A DNA stretch of 64,000 bases, taken from positions 496,001 through 560,000 of the forward strand of contig JANXOF010000037.1 of NCBI GenBank assembly GCA_025353725.1, given 5' to 3'. The notes under the pieces are model-generated. The model was given only the letters and a program-made list of their open reading frames with translations. It ran no database searches and was not told the DNA's origin. Below are positions 7,914-53,094 of this stretch, piece after piece. Both the position numbers and the translations under genes were made by a program. Positions within the stretch are counted from its first letter, which is position 1, and each line of letters starts with the position of its first letter. The DNA comes from Polyangiaceae bacterium (GTDB lineage: Bacteria; Myxococcota_A; Polyangia; Polyangiales; Polyangiaceae).

Positions 7914-8831
7914 CTACTGCTGCTCGCGTTGAGGCTCGCGCGCAAAGGCGACGAGTAACTCGTTCACGCGCTCCGGCGCTGAGTTTTGGACCCAGTGTGT
8001 AGCTTCGGGGATGTGCTCGACGCGCGCGTGGGGAACGAAGCGCGCGGGCGGCGTCGCTAACTCCTTGCCGAGGTGCCGGTCTTGGTCTCCCCAAATCACG
8101 AGGACTGGGCAGTCGATTCGCTTGGTCCTTGGCGACCGACCAAGAGCGCCACGCCGGAGCGCCGCGCGGTAGTAGTTCATGGCGCCGGTGACAGCGCCCG
8201 GTTGCCTCATGGCGTCGACATAAGGCTCTATCTCCGACGTTGGAAAGCCGTCGGCCGCGAAAGCCCAGCGAAGCGCCGCGTAGTTTGCGGCTTCGAGCGC
8301 GCGCTCTGGAAGGCCGAACGGAAGCTGAAAAAAGAACATGTACCAGCTCTTTTTGAGCTGCTTTATCGTCTTTAGACCTCGAATCATTTGGAGCGGATGA
8401 GGCACGTTGAGAATGGCAAGGCGACTCACGACTTCGGGCGAGTTCTGCGCGAGTGTCCACGCGACGACAGCGCCCCAATCGTGGCCGACCACGATGGCGG
8501 TCGTTCGGCCGAGCGCGCGAATCAATCCGGCGACATCGTCGGCGAGCCTCTCGACGTGATAGGCCTCCACCCCGTCGGGCTTGTCGGATTCGTTGTAGCC
8601 GCGCATATCCGGTGCAATGGCCCAAAATCCCGCGCCCGCGAAGGCTCGTAGTTGATGACGCCACGACCACCAAAATTCAGGAAACCCGTGGATGAAGATC
8701 ACGAGTGGCACGGCGTCGTTCATGACCGCGGGTCGAGCCTCGACGACGTGAAGTGTGACGTCGCCATTGACCGCGACCCTTCGATGCAGAAAGCCGTCGG
8801 CACGCTGTTCAGGAGTTTTCGATTCGTTCAT
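7914..8831 (-). CDS. Alpha/beta hydrolase, epoxide-hydrolase-like
   Basis: A protein of 305 residues with the epoxide hydrolase/haloalkane dehalogenase pattern: HGFPEFWWSWRHQL (oxyanion loop HGFPE), DMRGYNESDKP, the nucleophile elbow VVGHDWGAVVAW with Asp118, and a late His279 in PEATHWVQNSAPERV. An Asp rather than Ser nucleophile with HGFPE favours an epoxide hydrolase; the natural substrate is unknown. Its ATG overlaps the stop of the upstream K+ channel gene by four bases (ATGA), so the two should be translated together. No signal peptide, so cytoplasmic. Confidence 0.88.
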   Translation of the reverse strand: MNESKTPEQRADGFLHRRVAVNGDVTLHVVEARPAVMNDAVPLVIFIHGFPEFWWSWRHQLRAFAGAGFWAIAPDMRGYNESDKPDGVEAYHVERLADDVAGLIRALGRTTAIVVGHDWGAVVAWTLAQNSPEVVSRLAILNVPHPLQMIRGLKTIKQLKKSWYMFFFQLPFGLPERALEAANYAALRWAFAADGFPTSEIEPYVDAMRQPGAVTGAMNYYRAALRRGALGRSPRTKRIDCPVLVIWGDQDRHLGKELATPPARFVPHARVEHIPEATHWVQNSAPERVNELLVAFAREPQREQQ

Positions 8832-9736
8832 TGCGCGGTGCCTTCTACCTTCTCAAGGTCGTGGAATTTATCGAAGTCGATGGTCCGAACGCCATCTTCG
8901 CTCGTCCGCAAAATGTCTGCGAAGCGTGCATTATGCACAATTTCGTCGAGGTGATAGCGGTAGCGCGTGTGAATCGTCTGGCCGAACGTTTCATCGATGC
9001 CCGTCAGGGTCAAAAAGAGCTCGGCTTTCATCGCGCCGAGCGTCTCGAAAGCGTCGGGCCCGAAGAAAGGACTGTCCGATTCGATGGCGTGCATTGCCGT
9101 CCAAGTAAGCATAAACATTGGGTTTTTGTCGCGCAGGAGCCGAAGCGGAACGGGCCGTCGAAGCGTCTCGCCCTCGCGGGTCGTTTCGACCACGAGAACC
9201 ATCACATTGAGCTGCGCCTCCGCGATTCGATTGCGTCTCCAGTTGGCCATTCGAAACTGAAGATGCGGCACGCCGTTGCGGTTCGACATCACGGCCTTGC
9301 TCGAGAAGATAACCCTCGCCGTGGGACGCGCGAGCCGCGCAAAGGTGATGCCCGTGATCGTGGCCGTGGCAAGAATGCTCACCAGCGCCTCGAGTGACAC
9401 GAGCATGTGCGCATACCGACTCTGCGGAGCCATCACGCCGTAGCCGATCGTGGCAAACGTCTCGACGCTAAAAAAGAAGCTTTCGACGAAACCACTCGCG
9501 TTCGCGACCGACCCGGGCACGGCCACGTACGCGCACGCGAAGAGCGCATTCGTCGCGCCGTAAGCGACCGTGACCCAGCCGAAGAACGCGAGCCAGGTTT
9601 GCGTGAGAATCCAGTGATAAAAATCCTCGTACGGCGCCAGCGTATGACCGTTGACTTTGACCTGCGGCATCGACGCCAGCGCGCCGTCGAACTTAGGTCG
9701 AGGCCGCCGCGGTTGGCTCTGGTGTCGTTTGGTCAT
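8828..9736 (-). CDS. Inward-rectifier (KirBac-type) potassium channel
   Basis: A protein of 302 residues. After a basic N-terminus come a slide-helix region (YEDFYHWILTQTW), the first membrane helix (LAFFGWVTVAYGATNALFACAYVAV), a pore helix with selectivity filter TIGYG at 96-100, and the second helix (HMLVSLEALVSILATATITGITFARLARP). The remaining 160 residues are the Kir cytoplasmic beta domain (VMSNRNGVPHLQFRMANWRRN, PMFMLTWTAMHAIESDSPFFG, GIDETFGQTIHTRYRY). It would pass K+ across the inner membrane under control of the cytoplasmic domain. It is first in a pair coupled to the hydrolase gene by a 4-base overlap. Confidence 0.93.
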   Translation of the reverse strand: MTKRHQSQPRRPRPKFDGALASMPQVKVNGHTLAPYEDFYHWILTQTWLAFFGWVTVAYGATNALFACAYVAVPGSVANASGFVESFFFSVETFATIGYGVMAPQSRYAHMLVSLEALVSILATATITGITFARLARPTARVIFSSKAVMSNRNGVPHLQFRMANWRRNRIAEAQLNVMVLVVETTREGETLRRPVPLRLLRDKNPMFMLTWTAMHAIESDSPFFGPDAFETLGAMKAELFLTLTGIDETFGQTIHTRYRYHLDEIVHNARFADILRTSEDGVRTIDFDKFHDLEKVEGTAQ

Positions 9737-9773
9737 GGCCGCCGCAGCCTACACGACGAGACCAAAGGTACGC

Positions 9774-12344
9774 TTAGGCACCTTGATGAAACGGCACGCC
9801 GAGTAACGCAAGTGACCGCTCGGCTCGGGAGCGCAAGAAGCTCCGCGGGTCGCCGAGCATCAGCGTGAGCTCGGGGACGAAGCGGGGATCATCGGGCGCG
9901 TTCTCGGCGACGACGGCACGGACCTGATGATGGCCGCCTCGGAGGCCGTCGATGAGAACGTCATTGCTCTCACGCTGATTGAGCTTCGCGACCGCCCTCA
10001 CGAACGCGACGAGGTGACGTGGGGCGTCGTCGTATTCGTAGGTCGACGTCGGAGGCTCTGTGAATAGCTTCGCCGTCGCTTCTGCGAGCGGCCGCACGGA
10101 CGAGGGGTGCGCGCGGTCGGCCAGGCGTGTGGCTACGTTGTGCCGAAAGATGCCGAGAGAATCACGCAGCGCATCATGAAGCGCGTCGAGCCCACCACGT
10201 GTTTCGAGGTCGTCAATCACCGGCAGGTAGTAGCGGCGCGTCGCGGGGACTGGAACGCCCCAAGCTGTGAAAGCCGCGATGGCCGCTTGGCGCACGCGAT
10301 GATCGTCGCGCGTCACGAAGAAGCGCACGGTCTCGTGGCTGAGGAACGTCGCGTAGCTTGCCGCGGAGCGCGCGCTGGCGAGCTCTTCGAGCGAGCGAAG
10401 CGCCCACGTCAAGCGGCGCGAGCTCTCTTCTTGGCGAAACGCGGGCTCTCGAATCGCCCGATCGAGCGCGTGACGAAGCTCCGCAGGGCGCGGTCCTCGG
10501 CCTGGCGTCGGGCGGACTTTTCCGAGCGCCGTAAGACGTACGAGCTCAGCATCGGGCTCGAGACGCGACTGATCGTCGAGTCGATCGAGGATTTCACCCG
10601 CTTCCGCCCGGGCGCACGGGTGTGTGCCTGCGATTTCACCGACGGCCCAAACCGCCTCGCACGTCGCCTGGTCTTTGTGCGAAGCGAGGATTCGCGCCAA
10701 CGTCGTGAGCGCCGGAAGATAGCGAATCCGTCCGAGCGCCCAGGCGGCTACCGGCAGAATGGCGCGGTACTCCTGGCTTGTCGACTCCAACACTTCAAGC
10801 AGGCCTGGCCCAGCGCTCTCGTCACGGAGGACACCCAGCGCCGCCACGAGCTCCCTCACGAGCACGCCGCGCTCAATCCCCTCACGCCAGGTAGGCATAG
10901 GGTTGTCTTTGAGAAGCTCGCGGAGTGTAGCCGAGGCGCATCGGGCATCGAGCCCCGCGAGCGCGCGCACGACCCCAGCTTCGAGGAGTCGATAGCGCTG
11001 CGGTTCACGACGCAAGAGGTCGGTGAGCGGCGCGATGGCGTCGGGGTCACCTATCGCCGCGAGCATGTCGACCGCTGCGAGATCTCCTTTCGATGCGCGC
11101 GTGAGCAAGCCTGGTAACGCGCTGCGCGAGCCCAACTCTCCGAGTGCGCGTAGGGCTTCTTCGCGAACCTCCGTGGTCGCGAGTGGCTCGGTCGTGAGCG
11201 TCGACGCGTCGACGATTTCCACGAGCCGTTGCGTGAGAGCTTCGCTCGCGCCGGTTGAAGTTTCCAGCGTCGCAGTCGAGCCCATCGCCGCGCGTTGTGC
11301 GATCCCACGGCGCCTCAAAAGCTCCTGCGCAAGCTTCGTACGCGGTTGCGTATCCGTGCGCGTTGCCTCGGAAAAGACTACGGCTGCGTCACGGACGAGA
11401 GCGTCTTGCGACGTGAGCTGCGCGGCGAGGATGCCGTTGAGATCATCGTTGCTTTCGCGGAAAAAAGCTTCGACGAGCGGTCCGAGCGCAAGAGGCGTCG
11501 TTCGGTCGCGTTTTGAGCTCGCGGGCCGCCGGCCGCTTCGATCGGTAGAAGGCGGATGGGGTGGCTCGAACGGGCGCGAGACGAGCTTTTTTGCAGATCT
11601 CCTCACCAACGGATCGCTCGCCTCAAGAAGATCGAGGAGCATGCGCGCGCGCTCGAAAGCGGCGCGAACGCCCTCTTGTTCGGCGACCGTCGGAGCTGGC
11701 AGATGCTCTTTGAGAGAAGCGGCGACGTCGTCAAGCGCGTCGTCTCCAGACACTCGGCTTTCGTCGAGCGCGCATGCAAAAGCGAAGGTCGAAGCACCCC
11801 GGAATATGACGCGCGCCGCGTTCACGCTCGCGGGTTCGAGTCTTACGATCACACCCCGTGCCGGGCTCATCTCTTCGCCGAGGACGTACAGCCAAAGCGC
11901 GCCACTCCGCGAGAGTCCGAACGGCAGAGCGCCCGCGAGGTAGGCACAGAGGCGCGCGCGCCCGAGGGCCGTTTGTCTTGCGGCTGCTTCCAACTTCGTG
12001 AAGGTGTCCGCCCGCTGCGGACCTTTCGTGATGCGCGCGTGTGGCGACGCCCGCACGACGCTAGGCGCGTAGTCGCCGAGTGGCTGGCCGCCGCTAACCT
12101 CGAAAAACCGAACGAGATCGAGCGGTAGTTCGACCGAGAAGCTGTCGCGAGGTGCGCGCGAAAAAGCGCTTGCGGAATCGCTCTTTGGTGGCGGTCGCAA
12201 CGCCCGCGCGCTCATGAATCGCGCGAGTCCGCGTGTCAGAAACAATTCGGGCTTCGCGGCCGCATGAAGCATCCATTTCACGCCCACGATAGTCGGCTGA
12301 GAATCGACGGAATGAGGAGCTAGGTCAAGGTGTGCGCGTACCAT
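9774..12344 (-). CDS. Large HEAT-repeat protein
   Basis: A protein of about 856 residues. Residues 50-250 form an N-terminal region without a recognised family (FFEVSGGQPLGDYAPS, ALPFGLSRSGALWLYVLGEE). From about residue 250 to the end there are repeated helix pairs of HEAT type, such as VREEALRALGELGSRSALPGLL, VDMLAAIGDPDAIAPLTDLL, ALGRIRYLPALTTLARILAS and AVVAENAPDDPRFVPELTLML. Such repeats form protein-binding solenoids; there is no catalytic motif or signal peptide. The ATG at 12344 is used instead of the TTG two codons earlier; a later Met in MLHAAAK is also possible. Its partner is unknown. Confidence 0.8.
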   Translation of the reverse strand: MVRAHLDLAPHSVDSQPTIVGVKWMLHAAAKPELFLTRGLARFMSARALRPPPKSDSASAFSRAPRDSFSVELPLDLVRFFEVSGGQPLGDYAPSVVRASPHARITKGPQRADTFTKLEAAARQTALGRARLCAYLAGALPFGLSRSGALWLYVLGEEMSPARGVIVRLEPASVNAARVIFRGASTFAFACALDESRVSGDDALDDVAASLKEHLPAPTVAEQEGVRAAFERARMLLDLLEASDPLVRRSAKKLVSRPFEPPHPPSTDRSGRRPASSKRDRTTPLALGPLVEAFFRESNDDLNGILAAQLTSQDALVRDAAVVFSEATRTDTQPRTKLAQELLRRRGIAQRAAMGSTATLETSTGASEALTQRLVEIVDASTLTTEPLATTEVREEALRALGELGSRSALPGLLTRASKGDLAAVDMLAAIGDPDAIAPLTDLLRREPQRYRLLEAGVVRALAGLDARCASATLRELLKDNPMPTWREGIERGVLVRELVAALGVLRDESAGPGLLEVLESTSQEYRAILPVAAWALGRIRYLPALTTLARILASHKDQATCEAVWAVGEIAGTHPCARAEAGEILDRLDDQSRLEPDAELVRLTALGKVRPTPGRGPRPAELRHALDRAIREPAFRQEESSRRLTWALRSLEELASARSAASYATFLSHETVRFFVTRDDHRVRQAAIAAFTAWGVPVPATRRYYLPVIDDLETRGGLDALHDALRDSLGIFRHNVATRLADRAHPSSVRPLAEATAKLFTEPPTSTYEYDDAPRHLVAFVRAVAKLNQRESNDVLIDGLRGGHHQVRAVVAENAPDDPRFVPELTLMLGDPRSFLRSRAERSLALLGVPFHQGA

Positions 12345-48907: not shown

Positions 48908-49481
48908 GCCTCTCGCAGACTACGCGTACGAATCACGCCGGGCAACGCTCAGGTGAAACGCGCATCGGCGCGCGGGCGCGCGGGTCATAGAGGCGACTTG
49001 GCGCGGTCTACGTTCCTAGTGCGAAAACTTCGAGGGAATCGAAGACGCCCTCTATCGTACTCGCGGTCGACGTAGGGTTCTAGTTCTCCTGGCCATACCC
49101 CGCCCTAACGAGTACCCAACTGGAAGGGTTGTCCCACTTCGCTCCAAAAACGTCAGTCGGCGAGCCCCGCGTAGCGCCTCGCAGAACGCTGAGAAAATGG
49201 GTCCAGCTAGTCTCTATTTGAAACTTCGTTGACGAGAAGGTTGTGGACGGCGTTCGGGCGGCCCAAGAGGTCCAAGCGCTTCCCGTCATTCCCTGCGAAG
49301 AGAAAGTAGTGGTGTTGCCGAGTTTATTAATTGGACCCACGACAGTTCTTAAGGTGCCTTGACCTGGGTTGGACAAACTTGCGCGCTGTCCCTGGGGCGC
49401 GCCGCAGATACACCTGATACGTGCGTCTTTGCGTCGAACTCCCCCCGACAATACGAACGCGATGTCGCGATGTTGCCATCC
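48908..49481. other. Region without a supported gene, between the kinase and the rhodopsin remnant
   Basis: Nothing recognised. A minus-strand open frame (49080-49451, 123 residues) ends with FGAKWDNPSSWVLVRAGYGQEN and is not similar to any family I know. It starts right after the rhodopsin remnant, on the same strand, where helices D-G would be expected, so it may be replacement or decayed DNA. Confidence 0.35.
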
Positions 49482-49907
49482 TCAGGCGTCGTCAAAGGAT
49501 GCAGAGAAGCGTATCCCGAAGTCTGCGACGCGCAAGGACCCGCAAGACATCGGGCCGCGGACGCCCCTTTTCAGATTCAGCACTGCGACGAGCTCTGCAC
49601 AAAGAAGAGGTACGGTGAGCAGCCAGTCCACGTAGCGGTAAGCGTCGTTAAAAGGCACGCCTGTGGGCTTGTACAGATTTCCTTCCGCGTGGAACGACGC
49701 GCCCCATCCATTGAAGATTCGAAAGTAGTGGTATCCTGCAATCAAGACCACCAAGCTCGACATGATCATCGCCGGCCGGTAGGAGAGCGCAAGCTGTCGT
49801 CGCGCGAGTACAAAAAACACGAAAGACGCCAACATCGCAGCGATCGCGAGCGACAATATATTGTAGACCGAGTGATATTAGCCTTCGGTTAGGTCCACGA
49901 GATACAT
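49482..49907 (-). pseudogene. Truncated microbial rhodopsin gene (proteorhodopsin/xanthorhodopsin-like)
   Basis: Behind an AAGGAG ribosome site the ATG at 49907 opens MYLVDLTEG, then a TAA at 49880-49878 where related proteins have Gln. Reading through gives helix A (SLAIAAMLASFVFFVLARR), helix B (MIMSSLVVLIAGYHYFRIFNGW) and helix C, FNDAYRYVDWLLTVPLLCAELVAVLNL. Numbering from the ATG, Asp94 (proton acceptor) and Glu105 (donor) and the helix-B His are intact; Leu at the tuning position suggests green absorption. After helix C the similarity stops; helices D-G, with the Lys that binds retinal, are absent. It diverges from the carotenoid oxygenase gene at 50096. A light-driven proton pump is inferred for the ancestor. 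Confidence 0.85.
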
Positions 49908-50095
49908 GGTTGGCTCCTTCGGCTGTTATGCGCTGTCGAGACTCGTGTAAGAAGTTTTTAGGGCACGTCAACGAGTGCGCCCCCGACACTCGTCCGATAT
50001 CTACCTGATCAACCGCCCGATAGTCGCCCGAACAAACGTGGGGTCGCAGCTCGCGACTCTTGCCACGCCGCCCGGATGCCCCATAGGTTGCGCTC

Positions 50096-51550
50096 ATGCC
50101 GGAAGCCTCGAACCGTATGGGGAGCTACCTGCGCTCGAATGACTCGGTCCGGGATGAGCTGGATACCGTACTTCGCGTCGGTGAAGGCGCGCTGCCAGAT
50201 CGGCTACGCGGCGTGCTCTATCGAAACGGACCGGGTAAGGTGGAGGTTTTTGGCACGAAATATTCGCATCCGTTCGACGGAGACGGGATGGTTGCTCGGT
50301 TCGCTTTCGACGGTCACGCCGTCCGTTATCGCAATCGGTTCGTGCGCACGGACGAGTACGTCGCCGAGGAGAGGGCGCGGCGTATGCTCTACCGCAGCTT
50401 CGGCACGAACCTGCCCGGCGGGGTGATTCGCAACTTTCTGCGACTCCGCTTCAAGAATGCAGCGAATACGAGCGTCATTCTTCACGGGGGGAAGCTCCTC
50501 GCGCTCTGGGAGGGAGGTCTACCCCATCGGTTGGACCCGGTTACGCTCGACACTCTTGGTCGCTACGACTTCGACGGGGCACTCGCGAATCGAACAGGGC
50601 GGTTAAGTCGATGGATGTCGCCGGACCTTCCTTTCTCAGCGCATCCGAAGCTCGACCTTGATTCTGGTGAGCTCGTAAACTTTGGTACTTTGATGGGAGC
50701 TAAAAATCGCCTCGTATCGTACCGAGTGCGAAGGGACGGCGTGATGAGCGCGCCGTCTTTCACCAACCTCGAGAGTCTCTGCTTCGTGCACGACTTTGTG
50801 CTTACTAAGCACTATTGCGTTTATTTTCTCTCTGCGGTTTCATTTCGCGTTGGAGCCACGCTCGCCGGTCTCGCGACTCCGGTAGGCTCACTTTCTGGCG
50901 CGAGCGACGCGGCGGCTTCGATTCTCGTCGTGCCGAGAGACGGGCGCTCTTCGTTCGCAGTCCCGGCCGCGCCGGGTTTCGTCTTCCATTTTGCCAATGG
51001 CTACGAAGACGCGCGCGGGTTCGTGGTTCTCGACGGAATGCGTATGCCGTCACTCCCATCGGCGTCCGACGTTCAAAAACTCCTCGACGGAGAGGACGTC
51101 AATATTCCTTCCGCGACGCCAACACGGTACCTCGTTGATCCCGTCGGTCGAACCGTGTCCGAGACGGCGCTTACCTCTACTCCAGCTGACTTGCCAACGA
51201 TCGATCCGCGCTTTGTAGGTCGCCAAAATCGGCATTTCTGGGCTGTAGCGGGTGAAGCCGGCAACGCATCACCGCTCGCACATCGTATCCTTCACTTCGA
51301 TCACGAGGGGCCGCACGCCGAGCGCGATTTTGGCGTCGATTTTCCAGGCGAGCCTCTTTTCGTGCCCACATCGCCCGATGCGAAGGAAGGAGAAGGCTGG
51401 ATTCTCTCTCTCGTGTACCGCGTCGAGGCCCACCGCTCGGACCTTTACATCCTTCGGGCAAGTGACCTCGCCACCGAATGCCGCGTCGAGCTCCCGCACC
51501 ACAACCCCCCTGGCTTTCATGGCGTCTGGTGCCCTTCGCTCGCGAGCTGA
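50096..51550 (+). CDS. Carotenoid oxygenase (RPE65/CCD family), probable retinal-forming enzyme
   Basis: A cytoplasmic non-haem iron dioxygenase of 484 residues. The family start GVLYRNGPGKVEVFGTKYSHPFDGDGMV is present, and all four iron-binding histidines can be placed: His183 (FSAHPKLD), His232 (FVHDFVLT), His298 (FVFHFANGYE) and His475 (GFHGVW). The family cleaves carotenoids or apocarotenoids; bacterial members beside rhodopsin genes make retinal. The broken rhodopsin is 188 bases away and divergent, so the pair probably once formed a retinal-rhodopsin unit. No lycopene cyclase or other carotenoid gene is in the window, so the substrate must come from elsewhere. Confidence 0.92.
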   Translation: MPEASNRMGSYLRSNDSVRDELDTVLRVGEGALPDRLRGVLYRNGPGKVEVFGTKYSHPFDGDGMVARFAFDGHAVRYRNRFVRTDEYVAEERARRMLYRSFGTNLPGGVIRNFLRLRFKNAANTSVILHGGKLLALWEGGLPHRLDPVTLDTLGRYDFDGALANRTGRLSRWMSPDLPFSAHPKLDLDSGELVNFGTLMGAKNRLVSYRVRRDGVMSAPSFTNLESLCFVHDFVLTKHYCVYFLSAVSFRVGATLAGLATPVGSLSGASDAAASILVVPRDGRSSFAVPAAPGFVFHFANGYEDARGFVVLDGMRMPSLPSASDVQKLLDGEDVNIPSATPTRYLVDPVGRTVSETALTSTPADLPTIDPRFVGRQNRHFWAVAGEAGNASPLAHRILHFDHEGPHAERDFGVDFPGEPLFVPTSPDAKEGEGWILSLVYRVEAHRSDLYILRASDLATECRVELPHHNPPGFHGVWCPSLAS

Positions 51551-51654: not shown

Positions 51655-53094
51655 TTAGCGCTTCGTCACACGTCCAGGTTGACCCGCTGCCGCCCCCCAC
51701 GCGTCGTTTGCTCGACCGGTAGTCTTCAGCACCCCGCTCGCTCCTCCTTTCGCCGCGTACGTGCCCACACTTCGCGCCGCCGAATCGATCCAGATCACTC
51801 CACCTCCGCCACCTCCGCCCGGACCGTTGCTTTCCGTAGTGCTCAGGGAGTCGCCTCCGTTACCTCCGTTCGCTTTTGCGTCGCCGAGTGCGACGGTCGT
51901 TGCGCGCAGGACGATGAGCCCACCAGCTCCGCCGCCGCCGCCGGCTGACGCCGAGTTCGAGAACCCCGGGCCTCCGCTGACGTCGATGGAGAGCGACTCT
52001 TCAATTTGCGAAGCTCGCACGAACACGACGCCTCCTCCGGCGCCTCCGCTTGGTAGGGGGTCTCCGTCGTCTGCTTCTCCTGCCCCTCCGCCTCCGCCCA
52101 TCAAAAGCCTCAACGCCGGGCCGTAGTCATCCAACGCGGCACCGCCTCTTCCGGAGGGCTCGGCCCGGCCCATTTTCTTGTCAACGCTATCCTTGCTCCA
52201 CGTTCGGCCACCTAAGCCCCCGGCGCCCCCGTGTCCGCCTCCGCCGCCCCCTGCGTTGATACAGGCGCCGCCCCCTCCGCCGCTTCCGAAGCACGGAGCC
52301 CCCAGGCTCCCTGACTCGCCGAAGATGCCTTCGCCTTTCTGCGTGTACCCTACGACGGTGGCGATTTGATTCTCTCCACCACAATTCGAAGTATCCTTAG
52401 CGAGTCGCAGCGTTCCGGCGCCTCCGGCGAATCCGGCTTGGTCGGCGACAAAAGCGCCGTTCCCTCGCACGGCTCCCGTAGCCAACAAGGCGACAATACC
52501 GCCTTTTCTACCGTCCCAAGGGTCGGCTTCGACGTCGCCTTCGATTGATACATTCGTGTATTCGGGTACCCTCACGAGTTGGGTTCGACCCGAGTACGCG
52601 CTGGAGAGCGCGGCGCCGACGACAACCACTTTTCCATCAATGCTCGACACGCGCGCGAGTTCGTAGCGTCCGGCTCCAGCGAATGCGGCGAGCCCCATGG
52701 AAGGAACGCACGCCGCCCTCGGTGAGTTTCCCGCAGCCTGCCAAATCATCACGAGATCGCCTGCGCCCAAGCCTGAGACGCCGGGAGCCGTCTCCAAAGT
52801 AATGCGCAACGCGCCTCGTTCGAGCGGCGCACTGACGGCGAAGTACGTATTAATACGACCTTTCGCGCCTTGAGCGCGCACGAACGGTCCGTCATGGCCG
52901 TTCCCATTGCCGAACGCATCCGCAGGCGCCGGGGAGGGGACGTTGGGGGCTGCGTCAAAGTCATCGCCCGCATCGGTGTTTAAAGGGCGAACTGCATTCA
53001 CGTCTGCGTTGGAGGCGCCAAACGGCGTACACATCGTCACGCTGCAGAGCGCCACGGCGGTCGCAACCCACGCGGCGCAAAAGGGCAACCTCAC
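51655..53094 (-). CDS. Glycine-rich exported surface protein
   Basis: A protein of 479 residues with an exported start (LCSVTMCTPFG; a Cys could be lipidated). Beta-strand-rich sequence fills the first 220 residues (YFAVSAPLERGALRITLETAP, GKVVVVGAALSS). The second half has Gly-rich loops (GSGGGGGACINAGGGGGGHGGAGG, MGGGGGAGEAD) between strands (GGVVFVRASQIEESLSIDVSGG). The arrangement resembles Gly-rich myxobacterial cell-surface proteins such as AgmC-type, but the link is tentative. It is the only gene between the carotenoid oxygenase and the possible remnant at 53102. Confidence 0.7.
   Translation of the reverse strand: MRLPFCAAWVATAVALCSVTMCTPFGASNADVNAVRPLNTDAGDDFDAAPNVPSPAPADAFGNGNGHDGPFVRAQGAKGRINTYFAVSAPLERGALRITLETAPGVSGLGAGDLVMIWQAAGNSPRAACVPSMGLAAFAGAGRYELARVSSIDGKVVVVGAALSSAYSGRTQLVRVPEYTNVSIEGDVEADPWDGRKGGIVALLATGAVRGNGAFVADQAGFAGGAGTLRLAKDTSNCGGENQIATVVGYTQKGEGIFGESGSLGAPCFGSGGGGGACINAGGGGGGHGGAGGLGGRTWSKDSVDKKMGRAEPSGRGGAALDDYGPALRLLMGGGGGAGEADDGDPLPSGGAGGGVVFVRASQIEESLSIDVSGGPGFSNSASAGGGGGAGGLIVLRATTVALGDAKANGGNGGDSLSTTESNGPGGGGGGGVIWIDSAARSVGTYAAKGGASGVLKTTGRANDAWGAAAGQPGRVTKR

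What the first reader, a model, noticed from the sequence alone, without database searches (positions are those of the whole stretch)
49482..51550. Microbial rhodopsin gene broken while its retinal-forming neighbour is intact
The rhodopsin keeps helices A-C with proton acceptor Asp94 and donor Glu105, but has an early TAA (codon 10, one base from Gln CAA) and lacks helices D-G with the retinal Lys. The divergent carotenoid oxygenase keeps all four iron-ligand histidines. This looks like recent loss of light-driven proton pumping in a Myxococcota lineage, with retinal production kept, perhaps for another rhodopsin or a retinal signal.
Basis: partly seen in the sequence, partly recalled or inferred. 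Interest (0 to 1): 0.85.

Follow-up and report, generated by a model that had tools for sequence, protein, structure and literature searches.

The report
Broken xanthorhodopsin beside intact carotenoid oxygenase
This bacterium carries a light-driven pump gene that has recently been broken, next to an intact enzyme gene that probably makes the pump's pigment (retinal); keeping such an enzyme without a working pump turns out to be common in its relatives, so the loss itself is ordinary.

Summary
Window 49907-49548 (minus) encodes residues 1-120 of a xanthorhodopsin-type proton pump (helices A-C; Asp94, Thr98, Glu105, His60). It has a TAA at codon 10 and homology stops at the start of helix D. 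Profiles of helices D-G find nothing downstream or elsewhere in the 97.6%-complete genome, while the same profile hits all five control genomes. The divergent gene 50096-51550 is an intact oxygenase of the Synechocystis ACO (Diox1) type with all four iron histidines. One second-shell Glu (Glu370) is Asp, shared with its nearest relative, so this is not decay. Two separate lesions and normal constraint on the remnant point to a real, recent pseudogene. No other rhodopsin or Blh was found. The implied oddity (oxygenase kept, pump lost) is weaker than it looks: 16 Myxococcota genomes with the same oxygenase clade, two of them assembled in one or two contigs, have no detectable rhodopsin, as many cyanobacteria do with diox1. 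In two other genomes an oxygenase of this clade sits beside an intact rhodopsin, so supplying retinal is a plausible role. Neither gene was found in the other 11 genomes of the genus, which suggests acquisition followed by loss.

The parts
49548..49907 (-). Remnant of a xanthorhodopsin-type proton-pump gene: residues 1-120, helices A-C (His60, Asp94, Thr98, Glu105)
   Evidence: up to 69% amino-acid identity to intact XR-type rhodopsins of other Myxococcota
49878..49880 (-). In-frame TAA at codon 10 (first lesion)
49482..49547 (-). Non-homologous tail after the truncation point, ending in a stop (second lesion: helices D-G and the retinal lysine missing)
48908..49547 (.). Unmatched stretch where helices D-G would lie; no gene recognised, no rhodopsin trace, not repeated in the genome
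49908..50095 (.). Shared intergenic region between the divergent rhodopsin and oxygenase starts
   Evidence: no sigma-70-like promoter match
50096..51550 (+). Intact ACO/Diox1-type carotenoid (apocarotenoid) oxygenase, 484 aa, four iron His; second-shell Glu150 and Glu426 kept, Glu370 is Asp (Synechocystis ACO numbering)

Best explanation
The lineage once had a xanthorhodopsin-type light-driven proton pump, divergently arranged with an ACO-type oxygenase that cleaves (apo)carotenoids to retinal. The pump gene has recently been inactivated twice, by a nonsense codon near the start and by a deletion or rearrangement that removed helices D-G with the retinal-binding lysine. No functional rhodopsin can be made from it. 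The oxygenase is still intact, either because the loss is recent or because this oxygenase clade has a use that does not need rhodopsin, as its distribution suggests. Shown: the lesions, the missing half, the intact oxygenase, no other rhodopsin found. Inferred: former pumping, retinal as the oxygenase product, order and timing of events.
For: Sequence, profile and genome searches. There are two independent lesions about 330 bp apart inside a 592-kb contig. The remnant keeps 41 of 45 family-invariant sites, within the range of intact relatives. dN to relatives is 0.24-0.31, against 0.19-0.23 between intact relatives of similar distance, and omega=1 is rejected. The oxygenase keeps 55 of 56 invariant sites, has an ordinary branch length, and rejects omega=1 against four relatives. 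Oxygenases of its clade sit next to intact rhodopsins in G045 (same strand, adjacent) and G304 (divergent).
Against: One metagenome-type assembly in 98 contigs; read coverage could not be checked. Synonymous sites are saturated, so 'recent' rests on protein-level constraint and not on a dated rate. XR-type rhodopsins elsewhere in the phylum are not linked to ACO in the stretches examined, so the pairing here is a single case for that rhodopsin type.
Confidence: 0.87

Rival explanations
1. Assembly or consensus error: the organism has an intact rhodopsin and the break is an artefact of the metagenome assembly.
For: The assembly is fragmented (98 contigs, 3.4% contamination) and read data are not available.
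Against: Two separate lesions of different kinds in one gene; the locus lies inside a 592-kb contig; no loose helix D-G piece on any other contig.
Confidence: 0.07
2. The remnant is still used as a short three-helix membrane protein, made by re-initiation after the stop (for example at TTG 49856).
For: An open frame of 124 codons remains from TTG 49856, and the remnant sites look constrained.
Against: Recent loss explains the same constraint; no similar truncated rhodopsin with helices A-C only was seen among the 28 phylum genomes with hits; no retinal lysine.
Confidence: 0.04
3. The oxygenase is kept because it has a role independent of rhodopsin (retinal or another apocarotenoid as signal, antioxidant or breakdown product), so the pseudogene beside it is incidental. 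This is compatible with the best explanation and concerns only why the oxygenase stays.
For: The same clade is found in 16 Myxococcota genomes without detectable rhodopsin, including G270 (1 contig) and G434 (2 contigs); apart from rhodopsins it has no conserved neighbours. In cyanobacteria diox1 is near-universal even without rhodopsin (PMC7541481).
Against: In two genomes an oxygenase of this clade is next to an intact rhodopsin, and clade and rhodopsin co-occur somewhat more than by chance (Fisher p=0.02 with the window, 0.08 without), so supply of retinal is a likely function of at least some members.
Confidence: 0.45

Closest known systems
Xanthorhodopsin (Salinibacter ruber, PDB 3ddl) and XR-type rhodopsins of other Myxococcota
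   Same: Helices A-C align over their whole length, with the Asp/Thr/Glu proton-pump motif and His60
   Different: Nonsense codon 10 and no helices D-G, so no retinal lysine and no carotenoid-antenna glycine
Apocarotenoid-15,15'-oxygenase ACO/Diox1 of Synechocystis (PDB 2biw)
   Same: Whole-length homology (1.9e-82), four iron histidines, two of three second-shell glutamates; its clade joins the cyanobacterial ACOs in the tree
   Different: Glu370 is Asp (also in nearest relative G107); belongs to a separate Myxococcota clade (100/99 support); activity not tested
diox1 in rhodopsin-less cyanobacteria (PMC7541481)
   Same: Retinal-forming oxygenase present without a rhodopsin
   Different: Here a rhodopsin remnant is still visible beside it
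Patchy proteorhodopsin gain and loss in marine Flavobacteriia (PMC5932025, abstract only)
   Same: Gain, retention and loss of proton-pumping rhodopsins among relatives
   Different: Different phylum; there the retinal enzyme is usually Blh (own knowledge)

Membership tests
Xanthorhodopsin / microbial rhodopsin (PF01036), functional | Sequence homology to the family | tested here: met
Xanthorhodopsin / microbial rhodopsin (PF01036), functional | Asp-Thr-Glu proton-pump motif in helix C | tested here: met
   Asp94, Thr98, Glu105
Xanthorhodopsin / microbial rhodopsin (PF01036), functional | Seven helices with retinal-binding lysine in helix G | tested here: not met
   No D-G downstream or in the genome
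Xanthorhodopsin / microbial rhodopsin (PF01036), functional | Uninterrupted reading frame | tested here: not met
   TAA at codon 10
ACO/Diox1-type carotenoid oxygenase (PF03055) | Full-length match to the RPE65 family | tested here: met
   Profile positions 3-469 of 469
ACO/Diox1-type carotenoid oxygenase (PF03055) | Four iron-ligand histidines | tested here: met
ACO/Diox1-type carotenoid oxygenase (PF03055) | Three second-shell glutamates | tested here: inconclusive
   Two kept; Glu370 is Asp in the window and in 6 of 128 compared relatives, among them nearest relative G107
ACO/Diox1-type carotenoid oxygenase (PF03055) | Clusters with ACOs rather than other RPE65-family groups | tested here: met
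   Myxococcota clade 100/99; joined to cyanobacterial ACOs at 85/82
ACO/Diox1-type carotenoid oxygenase (PF03055) | Forms retinal from apocarotenoids | not testable with these tools
   needs an enzyme assay
Blh/Brp retinal-forming oxygenase (PF15461) | PF15461 match in the genome | tested here: not met
   No match in this genome; 11 of 379 phylum genomes match and all 11 have a rhodopsin

The most novel reading that the evidence does not exclude
A Myxococcota clade of ACO-type oxygenases makes retinal or another apocarotenoid for a purpose that needs no known rhodopsin (a signal or an unrecognised retinal protein), and this locus catches one genome after it lost the pump but kept that use.
Probability: 0.25. 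Interest if true: 0.65.

Novelty: new member of a known kind. Interest (0 to 1): 0.33.

Why it matters
A rhodopsin caught just after inactivation shows that light-driven pumping is gained and lost sporadically in Myxococcota. The more useful lead is the contrast between retinal enzymes: in this phylum Blh was found only with rhodopsin (11 of 11 genomes), whereas the ACO clade occurs mostly without it. This makes the question of what bacterial retinal-forming ACOs do without rhodopsin, raised for cyanobacteria, testable in cultured relatives.

Tried and rejected
(1) Decayed or frameshifted helices D-G downstream of 49548: rejected with nucleotide and six-frame profiles and a positive control. 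(2) D-G moved elsewhere in the genome: rejected. (3) Glu370Asp as a first sign of oxygenase decay: the first alignment made it look unique, but wider sampling showed it in nearest relative G107 and five others, so dropped. (4) Conserved partner genes next to the oxygenase: none apart from rhodopsins, allowing for pairs of closely related genomes. (5) Orthologous locus in the genus for an empty-site comparison: the flanking gene tested is not conserved there as a clear ortholog. (6) dN/dS: synonymous changes saturated (fitted dS mostly far above 2), so only omega=1 could be rejected. (7) Mobile-element or repeat origin of the 48908-49547 stretch: no repeat in the genome and only short, weak matches in relatives. 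(8) Viral contigs gave no relative, and plasmids gave only two distant rhodopsins at 49% identity. (9) The heliorhodopsin search was empty but had no positive control.

Full report
Check of the observation. On the minus strand the frame that starts with ATG at 49907 reads MYLVDLTEG*YHSVYNILSLAIAAMLASFVFFVLARR...YRYVDWLLTVPLLCAELVAVLNLKRGVRGPM and then runs into unrelated residues. The TAA is codon 10 (49880-49878); nearly all intact XR-type relatives have Q or E at that column. The fragment matches Salinibacter xanthorhodopsin at 2.5e-36 over 104 residues and Pfam Bac_rhodopsin at 7.9e-14 over profile positions 9-96 of 224, so it is far beyond chance. Nucleotide and protein comparisons with intact relatives agree that homology ends at about 49548-49579, at the start of helix D.

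Is the second half anywhere? A D-G profile built from 12 intact Myxococcota rhodopsins finds nothing convincing between 48901 and 49560 in DNA or in six frames, while it finds two held-out relatives at 1.7e-54 and 1.6e-35. Across the whole genome (6.6 Mb, 97.6% complete) the rhodopsin family gives only this fragment, and a D-G profile of 14 relatives gives no match even at E=10, though it hits all five control genomes at about 1e-60 or better. No heliorhodopsin was found, but that search lacked a positive control.

The neighbour. The divergent gene 50096-51550 is a complete RPE65-family enzyme (2e-119), closest among solved structures to the retinal-forming ACO of Synechocystis (1.9e-82). All four iron histidines are kept, as are second-shell Glu150 and Glu426. 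The position of Glu370 is Asp; this first looked unique but is shared with the nearest relative found (G107, 63% identical over 175 residues) and five others of 128 compared, so it is not a sign of decay. In a tree of 47 family members the enzyme falls in a Myxococcota clade (100/99) that joins the cyanobacterial ACOs (85/82), with an ordinary branch length.

Timing. The rhodopsin fragment keeps 41 of 45 sites that are invariant in 16 intact relatives, a fraction matched by an intact member (38 of 42). Its dN to relatives is 0.24-0.31, against 0.19-0.23 among intact ones of similar distance, and omega=1 is strongly rejected, but dS is saturated. The gene therefore spent nearly all of its divergence under constraint and was broken late; this is an inference. 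The oxygenase also rejects omega=1 against four relatives and keeps 55 of 56 invariant sites; selection after the rhodopsin was lost cannot be measured with the relatives at hand.

Distribution. Rhodopsins occur in 3 of 108 family genomes, and this is the only one of the 12 genus genomes with one; this oxygenase clade is likewise absent from the other genus members. In a sample of 379 Myxococcota genomes 28 have a rhodopsin match. Blh, the other retinal enzyme, is in 11, all of which have a rhodopsin (Fisher p=4e-14). The ACO clade behaves differently: G341, G430, G422, G353, G405, G270, G434, G253, G326, G408, G296 and G451, and in the family G043, G069, G011 and G107, have it without a detectable rhodopsin. 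G270 is a single contig and G434 has two. Clade members with a rhodopsin are G311, G412, G045, G304 and the window's genome. In G045 the oxygenase directly follows a rhodopsin on the same strand, and in G304 the two are divergent about 1.6 kb apart; both rhodopsins are of a type far from xanthorhodopsin. Apart from these, and allowing for pairs of closely related genomes, the oxygenases share no neighbours.

Reading. A functional link between this oxygenase clade and rhodopsin is likely in some genomes, which makes retinal a likely product; but possession of the oxygenase without rhodopsin is the commoner state. The same is published for cyanobacteria, where diox1 was found in 152 of 154 genomes, including strains lacking rhodopsin, and any other role of retinal is described as unclear (PMC7541481). 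Bacteria can also have functional rhodopsins without known retinal genes (PMC7734400), so presence or absence of either gene is a weak guide to the other.

Carotenoid supply. The genome has a carotenoid cluster at the end of contig C27 with phytoene synthase, a CrtD-type desaturase over its cut-off, a CrtC-like hydratase, a fatty-acid-hydroxylase-family protein and a weak lycopene-cyclase-like FAD protein. Carotenoids are therefore likely; production of beta-ring carotenoids, needed for retinal, is plausible but not shown. A second, distant RPE65-family enzyme lies on C46.

Limits. Read coverage was not available. The other genomes are mostly metagenome-type assemblies of 67-100% completeness, so single absences are weak, although the two highly contiguous genomes are less open to that doubt. 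No enzyme activity was tested.

Noticed in passing
L116 (G000 contig C27, 14000-33421): Carotenoid gene cluster with crtB, CrtD-type desaturase, CrtC-like hydratase, fatty-acid-hydroxylase-family protein and a weak lycopene-cyclase-like protein, running to the contig end.
   Followed up: partly
L111:7636-9024 (-) (G000 contig C46): Second, distant RPE65-family oxygenase in the same genome, outside the ACO clade; could cleave carotenoids to apocarotenoids upstream of the ACO.
   Followed up: partly
L109/L002:2126-3109 (-): In G094 an intact xanthorhodopsin lies just downstream of a MerR-type regulator with weak similarity to CarH, the light-dependent repressor of carotenoid genes.
   Followed up: no
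L105:6126-8281 and 8430-9983 (-): In G069 the rhodopsin-less ACO sits near a DASH-family cryptochrome and a gene that by eye resembles the Fpg/Nei DNA glycosylases.
   Followed up: no
phylum sample: Many XR-bearing Myxococcota genomes have neither Blh nor a close ACO, so their retinal source is unknown.
   Followed up: no
L142 (G365:C290:5384-5662): Another possibly damaged rhodopsin in the phylum: only the C-terminal half is matched, with a TGA inside.
   Followed up: no
window 51655-53094 (-): Very glycine-rich 479-aa open frame beside the oxygenase with no Pfam match.
   Followed up: no
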